Of a DNA stretch of 64,000 nucleotides, positions 8,356 to 17,142 are shown piece after piece. A program made the translations under genes and the position numbers. The first letter of the stretch is position 1; each line of letters starts with the position of its first letter. The stretch comes from Daphnia pulex. Taxonomy: Eukaryota; Arthropoda; Branchiopoda; Diplostraca; Daphniidae. The stretch is taken from contig NC_060025.1 in the NCBI RefSeq assembly GCF_021134715.1, positions 1,302,001-1,366,000 on the forward strand, given 5' to 3'. A model generated the notes under the pieces. That model was not told where the DNA came from. It did no database searches and saw nothing but the letters and a program-made list of their open reading frames with translations.

Positions 8356-9408
8356 TTAAACAGCAGGGCGGAGGGCCATTTCTTGAATGTCGCACAACAA
8401 CTTCGGGTGATCTTTTTTCGCCTTTTTCCATCCATCAGTCGCCATAACGTCAACTGGATTAATACGAAAGAAATCGACGGCTTCATTCTTCAAATCATCC
8501 ACCAGTTGGTGTTCATTGCCGAGTAGAAGCAGCAAATCCATGCAATTGTCGGGAGTCATATGATGGAGCAAATGGACTTCACACTCGGTCTTCAGCTGGT
8601 CCAAGAAGTATTTGTCTGCGGCAAAGTAAAGTTGAGTTGCCATTTTCTCCATGGTCTTTGAAGATAAACGGGCAGTGTACACGAAACGAAGCAACTCGTG
8701 AAATACATCCGGATTGATGTCTTCAATTTCCACTTGATTGGACAGTTTCTCCTTGGTCGGATGTTCGAACATGGCAGCAAAGACTTTGCTTCTTGACGCC
8801 AAAATACTTTTGTGTGCTTGAAATTTTTGAGCACCGACGTTTAGAGTGACGTCAGCGTACTTGATGTTTTCGAACAAATATTCAAAGTGGTCAATCAGCT
8901 GATCACTGCAACTAATTGACTGGTCTTGGATTAGATTAGCTTTACCTGCGACAGGTTCTTTTTTCGCGTACGATTCAATCTCGCAGTGGAAGACGAGACT
9001 TCCGTTCAATTGCTGACACTCAGATTTTAGGATTGCATCTTTGAGAAAATTCAGATGGATGCTACAATAGCCATTCTTTTGAACACCGTATACTTGCTGG
9101 AGAACTTTCTGTCGTTTCCCGTTTAGGATTGATAATTTCATGCGAAAAGGGTCGACAGCCGTGACGCTCTTGAAGTTAGCGAATCCGGGAGTTGTAAGAA
9201 ATAGTTGTACAGTTAATGTTGTACCCGCATCAGACAGTACTAGCTTCCACAGACGATCAGGAGTTTCTCTAGCTGAAAATAACGTTGATTCCAGAGGTTC
9301 CATCCACGCCGCAACAGTTTCTAGACATGGCACTTGAACATTCCATTCTAAATCAAGTTTTGAAATTTGTAATTCAGAGAGACAGACATTGTCCGCTGAC
9401 GACTGCAT
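8356..9408 (-). CDS. Intronless MATH-BTB (SPOP-like) protein
   Basis: A single uninterrupted frame of 350 residues. Residues about 15-150 look like a MATH/TRAF-like substrate-binding domain (DPFRMKLSILNG, GYCSIHLNFLKDAIL, GSLVFHCEIESY). Residues about 188-295 are a clear BTB/POZ domain (YADVTLNVGAQKFQAHKSIL, SRSKVFAAMFEH, ELLRFVYTARL, AADKYFLDQLK). The rest resembles the short BACK-like tail of SPOP. Such proteins bridge substrates to Cullin-3 ubiquitin ligases. The MATH part is divergent from true SPOP, and lack of introns among intron-rich neighbours suggests origin by retroposition or expansion of an intronless subfamily; that is inference. No stop or frameshift is visible. The substrate cannot be predicted. 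Confidence 0.88.
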   Translation of the reverse strand: MQSSADNVCLSELQISKLDLEWNVQVPCLETVAAWMEPLESTLFSARETPDRLWKLVLSDAGTTLTVQLFLTTPGFANFKSVTAVDPFRMKLSILNGKRQKVLQQVYGVQKNGYCSIHLNFLKDAILKSECQQLNGSLVFHCEIESYAKKEPVAGKANLIQDQSISCSDQLIDHFEYLFENIKYADVTLNVGAQKFQAHKSILASRSKVFAAMFEHPTKEKLSNQVEIEDINPDVFHELLRFVYTARLSSKTMEKMATQLYFAADKYFLDQLKTECEVHLLHHMTPDNCMDLLLLLGNEHQLVDDLKNEAVDFFRINPVDVMATDGWKKAKKDHPKLLCDIQEMALRPAV

Positions 9409-10451
9409 GGCTCAGTACGTAGAAAAATGGCGACTGTTACAAACACGTGTTATTCTCAACAAAGATGAAATGCGAATGCCAGCTCTCACTTGAGTGTTGA
9501 GTCACTTCCCACTTCCCAGACCCCAGCATCAGCAAAATTGCAGACTGAAGGGTGAAGGGTAAGGGGCTGAAAACGAATAGAAAACGAAACTTGAAAGGGT
9601 GTGAGAAAGAGTGGGAGGGGATAGAATTTCATAGAGCCGAAGAGAACCCGAGGGAATAAAACTTTATGTTGCTAAGAGAAATTGTAATTTGACCAATTGA
9701 TTGCAACTAAATACCACCGACGAAAGGGATTAACTTTTCAACCATAAAGATTATGTTGTTAATCATTGAATATGGCGTCATCTTTCATAAACCCGTAAAA
9801 AAGCCTGAAAACTGAGAAAGCTGTGACTAACCACACACATATAACTTAAGTTTTCTTGACAAATAAAAACGTCCTCCTCTCTATTATGTTTGGTCTCGTT
9901 TATTTAATTTGACGAACTCTAGAGAAGAAATTGTGCGATGATTTGTTCAGTTTGTTCTGTTTCGTCTTCGAAAATGGATGTCGTTCAGATGTCGTTCCAC
10001 AAACGCATGCCGTTCGTCTGCTAGGAGAGTACTCGGTATGTTGTTTGATTTGACTTAATTATTTAATCATCTGAACTGATTAAAAATTAAGCTTTATATC
10101 GGTCGTGAATGAGTGTAACTTGACACAGTCTTACTTAAAGGGGTTGTAATCAATTTTAATAGCATAAATCACATTTCAACGGTAAACCCCGTTTCTTTGG
10201 AAATTGGAATTTAATAATTTGATTTAATAAGAAACCGTTATAAATAAATAACGCAGTAGTTTAGAATTACCTCGTATATTCATATTTCGATAGGCAATTC
10301 AAACTTCGTTCGTGCATCGGTATAATAAGTGTGAGCTTGTTTTAACCGACGCTCACCAGATGTCTCACTCAAGAGCTTGTTTGTTGACTTGCACTTGAGT
10401 TCTGTCAGCGGCTGCAGTCAAGAATTTAGCAGTCCCACAAGACAAGTCGAA
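9409..10451. other. Divergent intergenic region between MATH-BTB and HDAC6
   Basis: About 1 kb separating two divergently transcribed genes, so both promoters should lie here. It is AT-rich toward HDAC6. I found no further exon, RNA gene, repeat or confident TATA/Inr pair. Confidence 0.5.
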
Positions 10452-13400
10452 ATGAGTAAACAAACAAAGTTTTCGAATTTCGTGAAAGGTCGCTCACCAT
10501 CGAATAAAAAAAATGAAAAATTAAATGTGTTTGTGGATCACTTGCAAAATGTAAGGACGGTTAAGACTGTTAAACGTTGTTTAATTTGGATAATGTTGAA
10601 GCTAGATGTTGATGAATGTATCACTCTGTTCTTGTAGACTCGGGATTCTAAAGATAAGATACGTGGCCAAACAGGAATTGTTTATGATGAACGGATGGTT
10701 GAACACCAGTGTCTTTGGGATCCCAATTACCCTGAATGTCCAGAGAGATTCACTCGGGTTTTGGAAAGGTCAGTTATCAGTTATATACCTAGTCTGAAAT
10801 TTAAACTGCTTATGGTGAAATAATGGTTAAAAAATCTTGCAGATGCCGTGAATATGGGTTGGCTCAACGCTGTGTAGAAATTCAACCTAGAAAGGCAACT
10901 CAAGATGAGCTGTTGAAACTTCACACACCAGACAGAATTGAATTGCTCAAAGGAACAGATGGCAGTCCAGATGCTGAAGCATTAGAAGCTATCAGCTCAG
11001 GTTATGATGCCATTTACATTCATCCATCAACAAATGAGCTAGCATTGTTGGCAGCTGGATCAACAGTTGAGATGGTTGATGCCATACTGGATGGAAAGAT
11101 ACAAAATGGAATGGCTGTAATCAGGTAATATACATACTTTGCAAATTTTACTCCTCTCTTTTGTTTCAATTCAAAACTGATTTATTTAGACCGCCAGGGC
11201 ACCATGCAATGAAAAGTGAATATTGTGGCTATTGTTTCTTCAACAATGTAGCAGTTGCAGCCCAGCATGCATTAGATAACAAGGGTGTTGAAAGAATTCT
11301 GATTGTTGATTGGGATGTTCACCATGGCCAGGCAACTCAACAAATGTTCTACGAAGACCCCAGGTAAAAAGGCATCTAGTTTATCACATGCACTGAATCA
11401 ATTCTATGTGAGGGTTACCTTTATTGAATATTCAGAGTCTTATATTTCTCGGTTCATCGTTATGAGCACGGAGCTTTTTGGCCCAATCTTCGTGAAAGCG
11501 ATTTTCACTACATTGGAAGTGGAGTTGGCAAAGGCTTTAACGTGAACGTGCCACTGAATAAAACGAAAATGGGTAACGCCGACTATCTGGCCATTTGGCA
11601 CCAGCTGCTATTGCCTCTGGCTTATGAAGTAATAACTCATCTTGATACCATGTTTCATTTCATCTATTCAAATCGTTCAATGCATATTAATACTATGGTT
11701 AAATACGCTTGTAATTTAAAAACGCGCTTCATCTTGTTCAGTTTCAACCAGAGTTGATTATTGTATCAGCCGGCTATGACGCTGCCTTGGGTTGTTTCGA
11801 GGTAGTGTACAAGACTTCCTACTTATTCTTTTTGTTTTTCTTCTTTTCTTGTGATTTGCATGGCAATAGTTCCGCCCTGATCTTGTTCTCGTCTCCTCTG
11901 GTTTCGATTCGGCACTAGGCGACGAGAAGGTCCAACATTTGTTCTCTTCTTATTTTATATTCTACCTTTTTCTGAAGGAATTGTGAAGATATGCGGTGAC
12001 TAATATTGTCAACGCCTTTTGTCAAATTTAGGGCGAAATGGAAATCACTCCCGCGTGCTACTCCCACTTGACGTCATCACTCATGGGGCTGGCCCAAGGC
12101 AAACTGGCTGTCGTTCTCGAAGTATAATCCGCTGACTCATCTATTACTCTGACCAAACCCTAGTGCTGGTCATTAATTATGTGTTTATTTTTAGGGAGGG
12201 TACTGCTTGAAATCCTTAGCCGAAGGAGCTGCTCTGACCTTGCGAACATTGCTTGGTGATCCTTGCCCAGTCATTGCAAAAGTCGAAGAGCCTTGTCAAA
12301 GGTAAAACGATTTCTTTTGACGAATATAATGCGGGCTGCATCATTTCTCTTATTGTAGTATTCAGGAAAGTATTTTGAGCGCTATTTATGTGCTTCGCCC
12401 TATGTGGAAATGTCTACAGTTCCAGGGCCGTTTTGATGCTTCAAAAGTGGGTAGTCAAAAGGAAGGAAAGCACTTTGTACCCAGTGTCACTTTTGAAGGA
12501 TCTGACGTCAAACAAACATTGTTTGCCACTCGAAACTGCTACCCAGTGCAGAGCAATGAGACGATTGACCTCTTGGATCAGCGCCTTGATAAGCTCATTA
12601 AAGGTGACATGAATGATTACAAATTTTAAATAACAATTTAATTAACTGTAATTGTTTATTATTTTAGAAACGAGCTTGGCAGTGCCTAAGCATCGCGTTT
12701 GTTTCATCTACGATGAAAGAATGGCTTTGCATCGTAATATCAACGAACCGTAAGTTGAATTTTAAATTGTTTCGAGTTCTTTGTTATTTTTATGGAATTG
12801 TTTGACGATATCTTTTGCAGTGGACATCCGGAGCGACCTGCTAGAATCACTTCAATCTACCAGAAATTGATGGAATTCGGAGTGTTGGAGCGCTGCCACC
12901 GGCTGGATGCTCGAGATGCCGATCGCGAAGAATTGCTGTGGTTGCATCAGGCCGACTACATCGATGAGATTGCGGCGACCGCTGGTAAAAAGCAATCGAC
13001 TCTCAACCAATTGGAACGGCAGTACGGATCCATCTTCATCTGTCCGGAAACCTATCAGGCTGCGTTGCTCTCAGCCGGCTCGTCTCTCCAAATTGTTGAA
13101 AGTATTTTGAGCGGTGAGAGTCGTAGTGGAATAGGAGTCGTCCGGCCACCGGGGCACCACGCGGAATGCGACGAAGCGTACGGCTTTTGTTTCTTCAACA
13201 ACACGGCGCTGGCAGCCAAATATGCCATCGAGATTCATCATTTAGAAAGGTAATGATGCAATTCAAACTCGTTTATTAGATTAAATACGATTTATTTTAT
13301 CTAGAATCCTTATCGTCGATTGGGATGTACACCACGGCAACGGAATCCAGCGGATGTTTGAAGAGGATCCGCGCGTATTGTACATTTCCTTGCATCGCTT

Positions 13401-14811
13401 CGACATCTTCCCTTTCAAACCGGAAGAATCTGATTGCAACGTAGTAGGAAGCGGATCCGGAGCTGGATACACAGTCAACATCGCTTGGCCCAAAGTATTT
13501 ATTATTCAAACTGAATTATTGTCATCTGTTTTCTTAACTTGTACCAACTTGTTTCATTCTTATAGAGAGGGATGGGCGACACGGAATACCTTGCTGCGTT
13601 CCAGCAGATTATTATGCCTATCGCTTATCAATACAATCCGCAGTTAGTTCTTGTTGCAGCTGGATTCGATGCGGCCCAGGGGGATCCGTTGGGAGGTAAA
13701 ATAAATTTTAAAAAAGTCCTTTTCATTTACCGTTGGATTTCTTTTAATTATACGACGTTCATAGGCTGCAAGATTACTCCGGAAGGGTACGGACAAATGA
13801 CGAACATGCTTAGTTCACTTGCTCAAGGACGTGTTGCTATCCTACTCGAAGGCGGCTACAATTTGGATTCCATTTCGCACTCGATGACCATGTGTGCCAA
13901 AGCTTTGCTGGGAGACCCATTACCTTCACCAAGAATCGAACCACTCAATCCGGCAGCCATCAGCACCATCAAGCAGGTCGTCAGCCATCTGCTTCCTTAT
14001 TGGAGTAGCCTCTGTTTCCACGTTGATTTACCCGAAGGAGATGTTCTCCCGCCTTGTGAAGTTACGAAAAAGCCGCTCAGTATTGAAGAACAATTGGAGA
14101 AACTCCAACTCGAGTCATCAGGAGCAACCAGTCAGGAGCCAGAAACTATCGTAGAGGGTACTGTGCTACTGCTGGAAGCTTGCGGTGTGACTGAGGCTGC
14201 TCCTCCTAAAACACTTCAGGAATTCTTGCTGTTGCCAGAAAATGTTGAGGTAAATCAAATCAAACTTCTTTTATTTTGCCAGTTTTCTAATTGGACCGCG
14301 TCTGCGACAGGCTATGAAGGAGGGTACGCTGTTTTCTGTGGTTCCTTTATCGTGGTGTCCACATATAGAAGGACACGTTCTACCCGATGATAATGTCGCC
14401 AATCCTTGGGGCCTGCAAACTCCTTGCTCATGTTGCCAGGATAAGTCAGAAAACTGGGTCTGCCTATCTTGTTATCAGGTAGATCTAGTTCATCACTTGA
14501 ATTGGCTGTATGTAACTTATCATAATTTGCGGCTTTGTTTCAGGTCAACTGTGGACGGTTCGTAAAAGGTCACATGAAGGAACATCATAACGAGAGTGGT
14601 CATTCGCTGGTTCTCAGTTTCTCTGATCTGTCAATCTGGTGTTACGAATGTGATTCCTACGTCGATAACAGGGTATGAACTTTTGGTTATCAAACGCAAT
14701 GCTGGATCTAAATTATTTTGTTTGGTCATTATCCAGGCATTCTATTCAGCCAAGAACCGACTACATGTGGAGAAGTTCGGCGAACCCTTGCCACCTTCGT
14801 TTTCAGGTTGA
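10452..14811 (+). CDS. HDAC6: Histone deacetylase 6 (tandem deacetylase with ubiquitin-binding zinc finger)
   Basis: Exons: 10452-10550, 10638-10768, 10843-11124, 11190-11363, 11436-11628, then one of 11742-11801 or 11870-11929, 12032-12121, 12195-12301, 12359-12603, 12668-12749, 12821-13249, 13305-13494, 13566-13695, 13765-14249, 14311-14478, 14544-14672 and 14737-14811. With one of the alternative pair it gives 1,022 residues. Domain 1 (about 44-400) has RPPGHH (171-176), zinc ligands D213, H215 and D306, and catalytic Y346 in LEGGY. Domain 2 (about 465-820) has RPPGHH near 595, D638, H640, D729 and Y769. A ZnF-UBP with the Cys/His set (WCPH, CSCC, HMKEHH, CYECDSY) covers about 904-1010. 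Both catalytic centres look intact. HDAC6 is a mainly cytoplasmic deacetylase of tubulin and other proteins and links ubiquitinated aggregates to dynein. Confidence 0.96.
11742..11801 (+). other. HDAC6: HDAC6 alternative exon A (catalytic segment of domain 1)
   Basis: A phase-0 exon of 60 bases encoding [20 protein letters not shown], with the zinc-binding Asp in GYD. It is preceded by a pyrimidine-rich tract ending TTCAG and followed by GTAGTG. It aligns residue for residue with exon B, 68 bases downstream. Use of one or the other is required, since including both would duplicate a core strand of the enzyme. Confidence 0.85.
11870..11929 (+). other. HDAC6: HDAC6 alternative exon B (catalytic segment of domain 1)
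   Basis: A phase-0 exon of 60 bases encoding [20 protein letters not shown], with the zinc-binding Asp in GFD. Its acceptor is GCAATAG and its donor GTCCAA, which looks weaker than that of exon A. Same length, phase and position in the fold as exon A, so the two appear mutually exclusive. Confidence 0.85.
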
Positions 14812-15226
14812 ATTACCTATTTGATATCGAGGGTGTTGGTAATTTTGTTCTACTGACGCTCTGCTTCCCCGAAGCTAAAAAGTTGAATTAAACGAACTAA
14901 TGCATTTTTATTGCAATCTATGAAATTTACGAAGCCTTAAAATTTTGTTTGTAACGCTTTTTGACCAGAAAAATAATTAAAATGGATCGAAAAGTAAGAA
15001 ATTGTCGATTTTTCTTTTGTTTGAAAGGCCAAATAACTTGAAACCAGTTTTGTTTCCGCCAGAAACCCACATTTAGTAGCCCAAAATAAAATTGAGGAAC
15101 CCGATGAAATAGAACATAAAATACAGCAAATTTTAAATGAGATCGTCTCAGGTTTTTATTTTTCTTAATTAATTCAAAGATGCAGATATATAAATGGAAA
15201 CGCATTGATTAAATCGATTGCTGGGG
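14812..15226. other. Convergent 3' ends of HDAC6 and PIGZ
   Basis: AT-rich sequence between two convergent stops. A minus-strand AATAAA at 15155-15160 lies about 67 bases past the PIGZ stop. Nothing else was recognised. Confidence 0.5.
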
Positions 15227-17142
15227 TCACCTGTGAGGGAACTGCAACTGGTAGACGACTAGAGCCATTTGATTACACTTTTTAGTTAGCCAAGGTAAAA
15301 AGGAATTGCATTGAATATCTGTCAGTGCACTCGTTGAATTCTTTGCGCATAAATCACCAAAATCGGGCGGATCCTCCATGGAAAGGTGCGGATAGCTCTT
15401 GTGGGCGTGCTTCCATCGAAGCGTTGGCAACGGCATCAAAAGTCGATCCATTTGGAACGATAGCGTGGCCGGGAAGACAACGAAAATTTCAGTCATCAAT
15501 TTTGTGCTTTGATACTTTGACTGGGCATCGGCCACCAATCGGACGCATCGCTGGCGAAGCTCATCCATCTGGGACGAACTGCCAAGGTCTTCGAAAAACA
15601 CTGTCCGTCCTCGCTGGTATCGAGTGCCGTTGATGTGATTAACGATCGATGCCCGATGCGGCAGGGCCAGCAAAGACATTGGAGGCATGTACGTGTGGAA
15701 GTAGAGCAGATGGGTGTGCGTTCCTCTGGCCCGTTCGTGGTGAATGTGCCGATGCAGCCAGTGCTGCGTCTCGTAAATTCCCCCCTGATGGAAGAATCCG
15801 AAAAAGAGAACACAGACGACGTTTCCGGCGTACCAAAAGGAGCGCAAGGCTTTGGCAGAAAGACCCTGCCGCCTCAGGAGAAACGGACCGAGGAGTAGAA
15901 CTAAAGGAACCAGAAGAGGCAAGAGGAATCTGGGTTCTTGGTGCGGAGTCAAGGATAAAGTCGCCAGTGGAACTGCAAAGGAGAAAATGAGCAATCCGTT
16001 GAAATCAAACAAGTTAGGTTTGGAAGTCCAGGGTGAAATGACGACGACGACAAGAGCTCGAGACACCAAGTACAATCCTCCCAATCCTAGAACGTTGAAC
16101 AACATGGGGATGTTGACGGCAGAGTGGAGGTACCAGGGGTGAAGGCCGTGTCTCGCCAAGTTGCTCTGATCCATGTTGTAAGCGATAAAGTTCAAGGGAG
16201 TCATCACCACTTCACCTACAGTCATCAAAGTCCATCCTCGATAGAACAAGGTGTCCGAGGCGACAATCACGATAGCCATTACGATGAAGGTGGGCAATAA
16301 ACTGGACATGCGATCGTGGAAATCGTTTAGGCCCACTTTCCTCAAGAACATACCCCTTTGCATCCAAAAGAACATGGGCACCAAGGCGTACAACATGAAG
16401 GTGGGTCTGTTGAACACTCCTAGAGCAAACAGAGCACCGATCCAGAAGCTGTGATTGTACTTGTGCAGAGGAATCTTCCTCTGCATTTTGACAATGTTGA
16501 CTCTCTCCACAGCATTGGCAGCCTTCTTGTATTGATCTTCCAGCTCGATTTCTCTTCTGATGTATCTGTCAGTCAGTTTCATGGAGGCAGAGACAAAGTA
16601 GAGGAGAGCAGAGAACAGCACCAGCTCAAGGGAGTTGGAGAACGTCCGAGAAAGAAACACCAAAGTCACATGGGAACTTGCCCAGATCTTGAGAGTGGAC
16701 CAGGGTCTAGTGTTGTTGTTTACGCAAATCTTGTAGATGAACATGTCTGAGAGAAAGGACAGGGCAGTCATCACAATCCTGGGAATGGTCACTAGCAAAT
16801 AGGGCTGCAAAACATCAAAGCTCCACCAGTCTTTAGCAAGTTGCATTAATGAATAAGGGCCTCCGATAGTCAGCAGTGGTAAAAACATGCTTCTGATGGG
16901 TAAGGTGGTATTAAATTCCCATGGTGTGTAAGTTTCCAGCTTGAATACTCGACCTAAAACACAGTTGGGCGTAATGATTGATTATGAATATCATTGCATT
17001 GGAACAAAAAAAATGCAGCAAACTCACCAGCAAGTATTTCAGTCGACTGAAAATATTCATCAGGATGAATATAGCCCGTTTGCGGTAGTAATGTGAGTGC
17101 AATTCTTACGAAACAAAGTAAGAAATAAGACCAGCAATGCAT
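15227..17142 (-). CDS. PIGZ: GPI mannosyltransferase 4 (PIGZ/SMP3, family GT22)
   Basis: Two exons on the minus strand: 17028-17142 and 15227-16953; 613 residues (human PIGZ about 579). The GT22 signature HPDE is at residues 26-29 (YIHPDEYFQSTE) after an N-terminal hydrophobic segment. TPWEF, PIRSMFLPLLTIGGPY and the LSLTPHQEPRFLLPLL motif are typical of the PIG-B/PIG-Z/ALG9 group; overall form best fits PIGZ. Many membrane segments are visible. The enzyme adds a mannose from dolichol-phosphate-mannose to the GPI anchor precursor in the ER lumen. The start is the first ATG just before the first membrane segment; upstream in-frame sequence has no ATG. It shares a 264-bp divergent promoter with the CEP290-like gene. 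The fourth-mannose specificity versus the related PIGB third-mannose enzyme is inferred. Confidence 0.88.

What the first reader, a model, noticed from the sequence alone, without database searches (positions are those of the whole stretch)
11742..11929. Candidate mutually exclusive exons swapping a catalytic segment of HDAC6 domain 1
Two adjacent 60-base, phase-0 exons encode aligned versions of the strand and loop that hold the third zinc ligand: [12 protein letters not shown] versus [12 protein letters not shown]. Both keep the Asp and both splice in frame to the same neighbours. Changing residues right after the ligand could tune substrate choice of the first deacetylase domain. I know of no such switch described for HDAC6. 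Domain 2 has a single version at the same place.
Basis: partly seen in the sequence, partly recalled or inferred. Interest (0 to 1): 0.8.

Follow-up and report, generated by a model that had tools for sequence, protein, structure and literature searches.

The report
Spliced gatekeeper swap in crustacean HDAC6
A deacetylase gene in what looks like a water flea carries two alternative versions of one short piece of its first catalytic domain, and swapping them would flip the charge of the residue that, in vertebrate relatives, helps decide which molecules the enzyme accepts; whether both versions are really used still has to be checked in RNA.

Summary
In a complete HDAC6 gene (CD1, CD2, zf-UBP) two adjacent 60-base phase-0 exons, A (11742-11801) and B (11870-11929), encode homologous versions of the segment with CD1's third zinc ligand. 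Either alone gives an open 1022-aa protein. Chance is excluded, and exon B does not look like a decayed copy of A: 2/20 third codon positions but 10/20 residues are shared, against 4 of 200,000 simulated neutral copies that kept that many and stayed open.

The last residue of each exon aligns with the class IIb gatekeeper (K353/K330 in HDAC6 CD1, E272/E274 in HDAC10). Exon A supplies Glu, as in HDAC10; exon B Lys, as in vertebrate CD1. A paralog in the same genome has only the Glu-type exon.

Best reading: mutually exclusive exons that switch the gate charge of CD1. One UGCAUG just upstream of B hints at Rbfox control, weakly. No RNA or second arthropod genome could be examined, so exclusivity and substrate change are inferred. 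None of the papers listed by six library searches reports such a switch.

The parts
10452..14811 (+). HDAC6 gene, ATG to stop: CD1, CD2, zf-UBP; 17 coding exons in each isoform
   Evidence: exon chain with AG/GT sites and one open frame of 1022 aa; two Hist_deacetyl stretches (PF00850, 608.1 bits) and zf-UBP (PF02148, 66.6 bits) in isoform B
11436..11628 (+). shared upstream exon, ends ...LLLPLAYE at a codon boundary
   Evidence: donor GAA|GTAATA, 14th of 17 by a generic matrix and weakest by U1 pairing
11742..11801 (+). exon [21 protein letters not shown]; zinc ligand Asp306, gatekeeper Glu313
   Evidence: 18 of 20 residues shared with the only exon of the paralog at this place
11779..11808 (+). 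13-bp hairpin that buries the donor of exon A (GAG|GTAGTG)
   Evidence: -17.8 kcal/mol, z -4.94, 0 of 1000 shuffles; but a coding-aware null gives P 0.023 and a constitutive donor at 14478 has an equal hairpin
11802..11869 (+). 68-base intron between A and B
   Evidence: ordinary length for the gene (introns outside the cluster 55-87); duplexes with the flanking introns no better than shuffles
11857..11862 (+). UGCAUG, candidate Rbfox site, 5 bases before the acceptor AG of exon B
   Evidence: only + strand copy in 9900-15000; 22 on that strand in the 64-kb window
11870..11929 (+). exon [21 protein letters not shown]; zinc ligand Asp306, gatekeeper Lys313; weak donor AAG|GTCCAA
12032..12121 (+). 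shared downstream exon, starts [12 protein letters not shown]
13566..13695 (+). CD2 exon at the equivalent place, single version, gatekeeper Leu

Best explanation
Exons A and B are an old, selectively maintained pair of mutually exclusive exons in the CD1 part of HDAC6. Each supplies one whole version of the core strand, the third zinc ligand and the loop after it, and each ends exactly on the active-site gatekeeper residue: Glu in A, Lys in B. Choosing one exon sets the charge at the mouth of CD1. By analogy with vertebrate enzymes, the Lys form should favour substrates with a negative charge next to the acetyl-lysine (C-terminal acetyl-lysine), and the Glu form positively charged ones (acetylpolyamine-like or basic). 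For exon choice, the likeliest trigger on present evidence is Rbfox-type repression of the B acceptor through the UGCAUG 5 bases from its AG, which would leave A as the form made where Rbfox is active; the weak B donor fits a regulated exon. Shown here: exon anatomy, homology, frame, long-term constraint, gatekeeper alignment. Inferred: use in RNA, mutual exclusivity, substrate change, Rbfox control.
For: Same length, phase and splice-site type, in frame with the same neighbours. Synonymous sites randomised (2/20 third positions shared) but 10/20 residues kept; of 200,000 simulated neutral copies at 29/60 nt identity, 9 kept 10 or more residues and 4 of these stayed open. Where A and B differ, B carries V6, L7, F12 and D18, which A lacks and which human CD1, zebrafish CD1, human HDAC10 (recalled) and the gene's own CD2 have; 2 of 200,000 neutral copies of A had all four. 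Gatekeeper: alignment to PDB chains of HDAC6 puts the last exon residue opposite the CD1 Lys, known as K353/K330, with HDAC10 Glu and CD2 Leu in the same column (L749 = K353). Other gate-shaping residues of CD1 lie outside the swapped exon: human F105, Y225 and W284 align with Tyr, Tyr and Trp (my count on the alignment; roles). The His-His, DWDVHH and GGY motifs are present (roles recalled). Pfam Hist_deacetyl runs as one stretch with A (288.9 bits) or B (296.8), but breaks in two with both or neither exon. PMC5454378 passages: E274L in zebrafish HDAC10 cut acetylspermidine activity 20-fold and raised acetyl-lysine activity about 100-fold. Rbfox precedent: UGCAUG in the intron between the FGFR2 pair represses the second exon; in egl-15 it lies upstream of the repressed exon 5B. 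Two Rbfox-like RRM exons lie close together in this genome, 91% and 80% identical to a recalled query.
Against: No transcript evidence. Both-in and neither transcripts stay in frame, so decay of wrong products would not enforce exclusivity, and a 68-base intron is no steric bar in this gene. No intron-intron pairing above shuffles; the whole region folds like shuffles, z -0.17. One UGCAUG in 283 bases of cluster introns has about a 10% chance at the window's density (22 per 64 kb). The HDAC10 loop-1 insertion that also helps polyamine specificity is absent, so Glu alone may not make a polyamine deacetylase. Vertebrate CD1 is a poor enzyme by itself: no activity on the tested peptides with CD2 inactivated, and a review says it cannot deacetylate without CD2 (PMC12497803, passage), so a changed gate may matter little. 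The donor of B is weak: second lowest of 17 by a generic matrix, third lowest by U1 pairing, which also fits little use. The paralog does without B. Constraint on B was judged against A in one genome only; recent loss of B's function cannot be excluded.
Confidence: 0.7

Rival explanations
1. Exon A is the working exon and B is a relic or is used at a trace level; no regulated switch exists.
For: B donor AAG|GTCCAA is among the weakest; the paralog has an A-type exon only; A-type is nearly unchanged between the two genes, 18 of 20 residues.
Against: B is open, keeps AG/GT sites, and shows constraint that few neutral copies reach (4 of 200,000); B holds family residues that A has lost; three constitutive donors of the same gene are about as weak.
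Confidence: 0.14
2. Both exons are included together, always or as an alternative, giving a 1042-aa protein with a duplicated strand.
For: The A-B intron (68 bases) is a normal length here and the frame is kept.
Against: The duplicate would sit in the core of a conserved fold; the Pfam domain breaks into two stretches with both exons. On the Drosophila X chromosome only 90 of 16,180 non-exclusive exons, in six genes, have the features of exclusive exons (PMC3228551, passage).
Confidence: 0.06
3. The exons are alternatively used but the gatekeeper change is incidental; the swap tunes stability, partner binding or CD1-CD2 coupling.
For: Nine other residues differ as well, among them Asp18 replaced by Cys in A; CD1 of vertebrates was reported to act only on unnatural or C-terminal acetyl-lysine substrates, and HDAC6 showed no activity on tested peptides without CD2 (passages).
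Against: The one residue with a published specificity effect flips charge, exactly between the two charged gate types.
Confidence: 0.25
4. Exon choice is set by RNA structure: the 13-bp hairpin over the donor of A holds A back, much as the stem-loop at tau exon 10 does (recalled).
For: Hairpin z -4.94, 0 of 1000 shuffles; the paralog's A exon keeps 11 of 13 pairs in the same register, z -2.46. The donor of B also folds locally, but less strikingly (z -1.76, 5.4% of 1000 shuffles as good).
Against: Much of the pairing follows from the amino acids (mean 10.4 of 13 under random synonymous codons; P 0.023 for A, 0.11 for the paralog); an equal hairpin sits on a constitutive donor (14478, z -5.52); the paralog has no exon to choose.
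Confidence: 0.2

Closest known systems
Mutually exclusive exons that swap an enzyme's active-site segment: C. elegans coq-2 (PMC8659336, passages seen)
   Same: Two exclusive exons exchange core active-site residues and so the substrate used (4HB versus 3HA)
   Different: Different enzyme; there the splice forms and two key residues were tested in vivo, here nothing is tested; here the exchange flips the charge of a gatekeeper
Vertebrate HDAC6 CD1 (gatekeeper K353/K330)
   Same: Domain order, catalytic motifs, Lys at the gate in the B form, aromatic and Trp gate-shaping residues
   Different: Vertebrate CD1 shows Lys in the structures aligned here; here the gate residue is carried by one of two exons
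HDAC10 polyamine deacetylase (gatekeeper E272/E274)
   Same: Glu at the gate in the A form
   Different: No loop-1 P(E/A)CE insertion, second domain not degenerate, and the gene is HDAC6 by architecture
Rbfox-regulated exclusive exons (FGFR2 exons 8/9, egl-15 5A/5B, unc-32 7a/7b; PMC2880598 and PMC3585155, passages seen)
   Same: UGCAUG near one member of the pair; FGFR2 has the same layout (in the intron between the pair, repressing the second exon)
   Different: Binding and regulation untested here; single motif; in egl-15 it lies in the intron upstream of 5B and in unc-32 in intron 7b

Membership tests
Mutually exclusive exon cluster | adjacent homologous exons of similar length, same phase, compatible splice sites | tested here: met
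   both 60 bases, phase 0, AG/GT, 10/20 residues; criteria as in PMC3228551 and PMC3923563 (passages)
Mutually exclusive exon cluster | both members maintained as coding sequence | tested here: met
   third positions 2/20 shared against 10/20 residues; 4 of 200,000 neutral copies; within one genome only
Mutually exclusive exon cluster | transcripts hold exactly one of the exons | not testable with these tools
   no RNA data available
Mutually exclusive exon cluster | a mechanism that prevents double inclusion (short intron, frame, docking structures) | tested here: inconclusive
   68-base intron is ordinary, frame kept, no docking pairs; one UGCAUG
HDAC6 | two deacetylase domains and a zf-UBP | tested here: met
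   PF00850 twice and PF02148
HDAC6 | CD1 gatekeeper Lys | tested here: met
   met in the exon B form only; exon A has Glu
HDAC10 polyamine deacetylase | gatekeeper Glu | tested here: met
   met in the exon A form and in the paralog L024
HDAC10 polyamine deacetylase | two-residue insertion with P(E/A)CE helix in loop 1 | tested here: not met
   loop reads without the insertion in CD1 and in the paralog
HDAC10 polyamine deacetylase | acetylpolyamine hydrolysis | not testable with these tools
   needs enzyme assay
Rbfox-regulated exclusive exons | UGCAUG in a flanking intron | tested here: met
   11857-11862, with about 10% chance expectation over the three cluster introns
Rbfox-regulated exclusive exons | motif conserved in related species and binding shown | not testable with these tools
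   no related arthropod genome or binding data; no UGCAUG found in the paralog gene

The most novel reading that the evidence does not exclude
One arthropod gene does by splicing what vertebrates do with two genes: HDAC6 with exon B acts as a Lys-gated CD1 for anionic C-terminal acetyl-lysine, and with exon A as a Glu-gated, HDAC10-like deacetylase for polyamines or basic substrates, with Rbfox setting the choice by cell type. The Glu-gated paralog with a degenerate second domain would then be a parallel HDAC10-like gene.
Probability: 0.27. Interest if true: 0.87.

Novelty: new variant of a known kind. Interest (0 to 1): 0.7.

Why it matters
CD1 is the less understood catalytic domain of HDAC6; [quoted passage not shown] A natural pair of splice forms that flips the charge of its gatekeeper is a ready-made experiment: compare where and when each form is made, and what each deacetylates, in one animal. 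It would also be an active-site specificity switch made by splicing, of which the passages seen here give one tested case (coq-2), and could explain how arthropods, for which PMC7288346 names HDAC6 as class IIb and no HDAC10 (passages), cover both gate types.

Tried and rejected
Docking/selector RNA pairing between the three cluster introns: best duplexes -14.8, -18.7 and -16.1 kcal/mol against shuffle means of -14.6, -19.7 and -17.1 (500 each); rejected. Whole-region fold: z -0.17. Rfam at gathering scores: no match in 11400-12200. Steric exclusion by a short A-B intron: rejected, since 68 bases is ordinary for the gene. Exon B as a decayed or chance copy: rejected. Donor hairpin of exon A as the switch: kept only as a weak rival, because a coding-aware null explains most of it.

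Search for the exon pair elsewhere: viral contigs gave no relative with an exon-A query (18 pattern matches, none confirmed) and no match to B-type or A-type DNA patterns; prokaryote genomes gave 14 bacterial relatives only, all with Met at the gate (12 read by the script, 2 by eye). So no second arthropod could be compared. Vertebrate rows came from PDB chains as printed; the HDAC10 row of the tree is recalled human sequence, which matched PDB HDAC10 chains strongly. I recall that Drosophila HDAC6 CD1 has an A-type segment; no call confirms it. The order of exon duplication and gene duplication is not resolved: third positions are near random for A-B (2/20), A-paralog (6/20) and B-paralog (8/20).

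Paper searches, 10 of 10 used, judged from listings: (31 papers, 25 listed; 66, 15; 6, 6; 5, 5; 444, 12; 0; 15, 10; 24, 8; 49, 12), 45 (25, 12). Those that could have shown an exclusive-exon report for HDAC6 are 5, 13, 14, 26, 44 and 45; none listed did. The Drosophila exclusive-exome paper (10.1038/ncomms3460) is not held. Papers seen only as passages: PMC5454378, PMC10157890, PMC12497803, PMC7288346, PMC8659336, PMC3585155, PMC2880598, PMC3228551, PMC3923563. Structure prediction was not run: its stated rule asks for proteins that the DNA gives letter for letter, which a spliced protein may not meet, and it would not have been decisive.

Full report
WHAT IS THERE. The window is C9:1302001-1366000 of a 133.19-Mb, 13-contig genome; size and contig number look like Daphnia pulex (recalled, not tested). 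The gene is HDAC6 by architecture: two Hist_deacetyl stretches and a zf-UBP. I assembled it by splice sites and homology. A alone or B alone gives 1022 aa, both 1042, neither 1002, all in frame.

MORE THAN CHANCE. A and B share 29 of 60 bases and 10 of 20 residues; by codon position 11, 16 and 2 of 20. None of the ten shared residues uses the same codon. Of 5000 dinucleotide shuffles of the 230 bases after exon A, 762 held any AG/GT-flanked open 60-mer and 0 reached 10 matches (best 6); without the splice-site condition 0 of 2000 did (best 8). Of 200,000 copies of A mutated at random to the same nucleotide identity, 9 kept 10 or more residues, 4 of these without a stop. Synonymous change is near saturation while protein change is not, so both exons look long held by selection; since B could be compared only with A and the paralog's A-type exon in one genome, recent loss of its function is not excluded. 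B does not look like a worn copy of A: at V6, L7, F12 and D18 it has the residues of human CD1, zebrafish CD1, human HDAC10 (recalled) and the gene's own CD2, where A differs; 2 of 200,000 neutral copies had all four. Against this, A beats B at Q2, A10 and A14 for vertebrate CD1 and at E4, A10 and E20 for HDAC10.

THE GATEKEEPER. The last codon of each exon (residue 313, ligand +7) aligns with the class IIb gatekeeper. In one search it lies opposite the Lys of human and zebrafish HDAC6 CD1. Passages of PMC5454378 say that this Lys dictates specificity for C-terminal acetyl-lysine, that HDAC10 has Glu there, that all other human HDACs have Leu or Met, and that E274L turned zebrafish HDAC10 from a polyamine deacetylase into a lysine deacetylase. 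A passage of PMC10157890 gives L749 of CD2 as the counterpart of K353. Exon A has Glu, exon B Lys, CD2 Leu; 14 of 14 bacterial relatives have Met (12 read by the script, 2 by eye). So the pair exchanges the two charged types. The codons are GAG and AAG, directly at the splice junction. Other CD1 residues that narrow the tunnel (human F105, Y225, W284) lie in shared exons and are Tyr, Tyr and Trp here (counted by me's alignment). The loop-1 insertion of HDAC10 is absent. The gate alone should therefore shift preference but may not make a full polyamine deacetylase; PMC5454378 itself calls the gatekeeper necessary but not sufficient. Passages also report no activity of human HDAC6 on tested peptides with CD2 inactivated, and a review states that CD1 needs CD2 (PMC12497803), so the effect of the gate in the whole enzyme is uncertain.

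PARALOGS. A search for PF00850 gave 27 exon matches (only best candidates are scored); all lie in the window or in the eight regions I fetched. A motif scan read the third-ligand segment in six of those eight (L024-L029; none convincing in L022 and L023). At C9:7792000-7797500 (L024) lies a second HDAC6-like gene. Its CD1 is 73% identical to the window CD1 outside the swapped exon and has the same catalytic motifs, but a single exon at this place, [20 protein letters not shown]: 18 of 20 residues as in A, Glu at the gate, between introns of 74 and 71 bases with no room for a second 60-base exon. Its second domain has lost the zinc-binding motifs. Copies and fragments of CD2 type lie on C12:1.44-1.466 Mb. 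I saw no HDAC10-type locus, but inspected loop 1 only in the window gene and L024. Passages of PMC7288346 give Drosophila one class IIb gene and name HDAC1/3/4/6/11 for the arthropods examined, with no HDAC10. In a tree of 8 rows (isoform B left out, being identical outside the exon) the two Daphnia CD1s form one clade (100/100), and vertebrate CD1 groups with HDAC10 (80/84, modest; midpoint root). That would make this CD1 a co-ortholog of both vertebrate enzymes.

HOW EXCLUSION MIGHT WORK. The A-B intron, 68 bases, is ordinary; introns outside the cluster are 55-87 bases and the outer cluster introns 113 and 102. Frame does not enforce exclusion. Protein fold might: Pfam's domain runs unbroken with A (288.9 bits) or B (296.8) but splits in two with both or neither, although the summed both-in score (307.7) is higher, probably because the segment counts twice. 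Intron-intron pairing is at shuffle level for all three pairs. Donors: by a generic matrix (frequencies recalled) A ranks 13th and B 16th of 17; by U1 pairing B is third weakest; three constitutive donors are about as weak. A UGCAUG at 11857-11862, 5 bases before the B acceptor AG, is the only + strand copy within 9900-15000 (22 in the window), and none was found in the paralog gene. Rbfox-like RRM exons exist in the genome (91% and 80% identity to a recalled query, among 14 RRM matches). Passages report repression through UGCAUG in the upstream intron for FGFR2 exon 9, the same layout as here (PMC2880598), and for egl-15 exon 5B (PMC3585155). The layout fits, but one motif in 283 bases is expected about one time in ten. 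The donor of A lies inside a 13-bp hairpin (z -4.94). Random synonymous codons already give 10.4 of 13 pairs on average (P 0.023 for 13), the paralog keeps 11 (P 0.11), and a constitutive donor at 14478 is equally buried, so I give it little weight.

KNOWN OR NEW. Exclusive exons are a known kind, and exclusive exons that change an enzyme's substrate are known: coq-2 (PMC8659336 passages). None of the papers listed by searches reports, by title or abstract start, such exons in HDAC6 or a spliced HDAC gatekeeper; the library is open access only, longer lists were cut, and existing database annotations of this gene could not be seen. I therefore call it a new variant of a known kind.

LIMITS. 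No RNA, no second arthropod genome, no enzyme data. That both exons are real and were maintained is well supported; that they are used one at a time is likely; that the gate changes the substrate is a strong analogy with one caveat about CD1 activity; the Rbfox step is a guess with a fitting motif.

Noticed in passing
L024 (G000:C9:7792000-7797500): Second HDAC6-like gene with a Glu-gated CD1 whose catalytic motifs are intact and a second domain that has lost its zinc-binding motifs, an architecture like HDAC10 (active domain plus pseudo-domain).
   Followed up: partly
L022, L023, L029 (G000:C12:1438500-1466000): Cluster of CD2-type HDAC6 copies and fragments, at least one with intact motifs (GFDAALGDPLGG, DWDIHHG in L029) and others broken or lacking key motifs.
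   Followed up: partly
window 14451-14492: Constitutive donor at 14478 buried in a strong hairpin (z -5.52), as strong as the one on exon A.
   Followed up: no
window 8356-9411 (-) and 15227-16981 (-): Neighbouring genes: a BTB/POZ protein and an Alg9-like mannosyltransferase.
   Followed up: no
window 13305-13494: CD2 reads [10 protein letters not shown] where human and zebrafish CD2 read HRYDHGTFFP and HRYEDGAFFP, so substrate contacts of CD2 may differ too.
   Followed up: no
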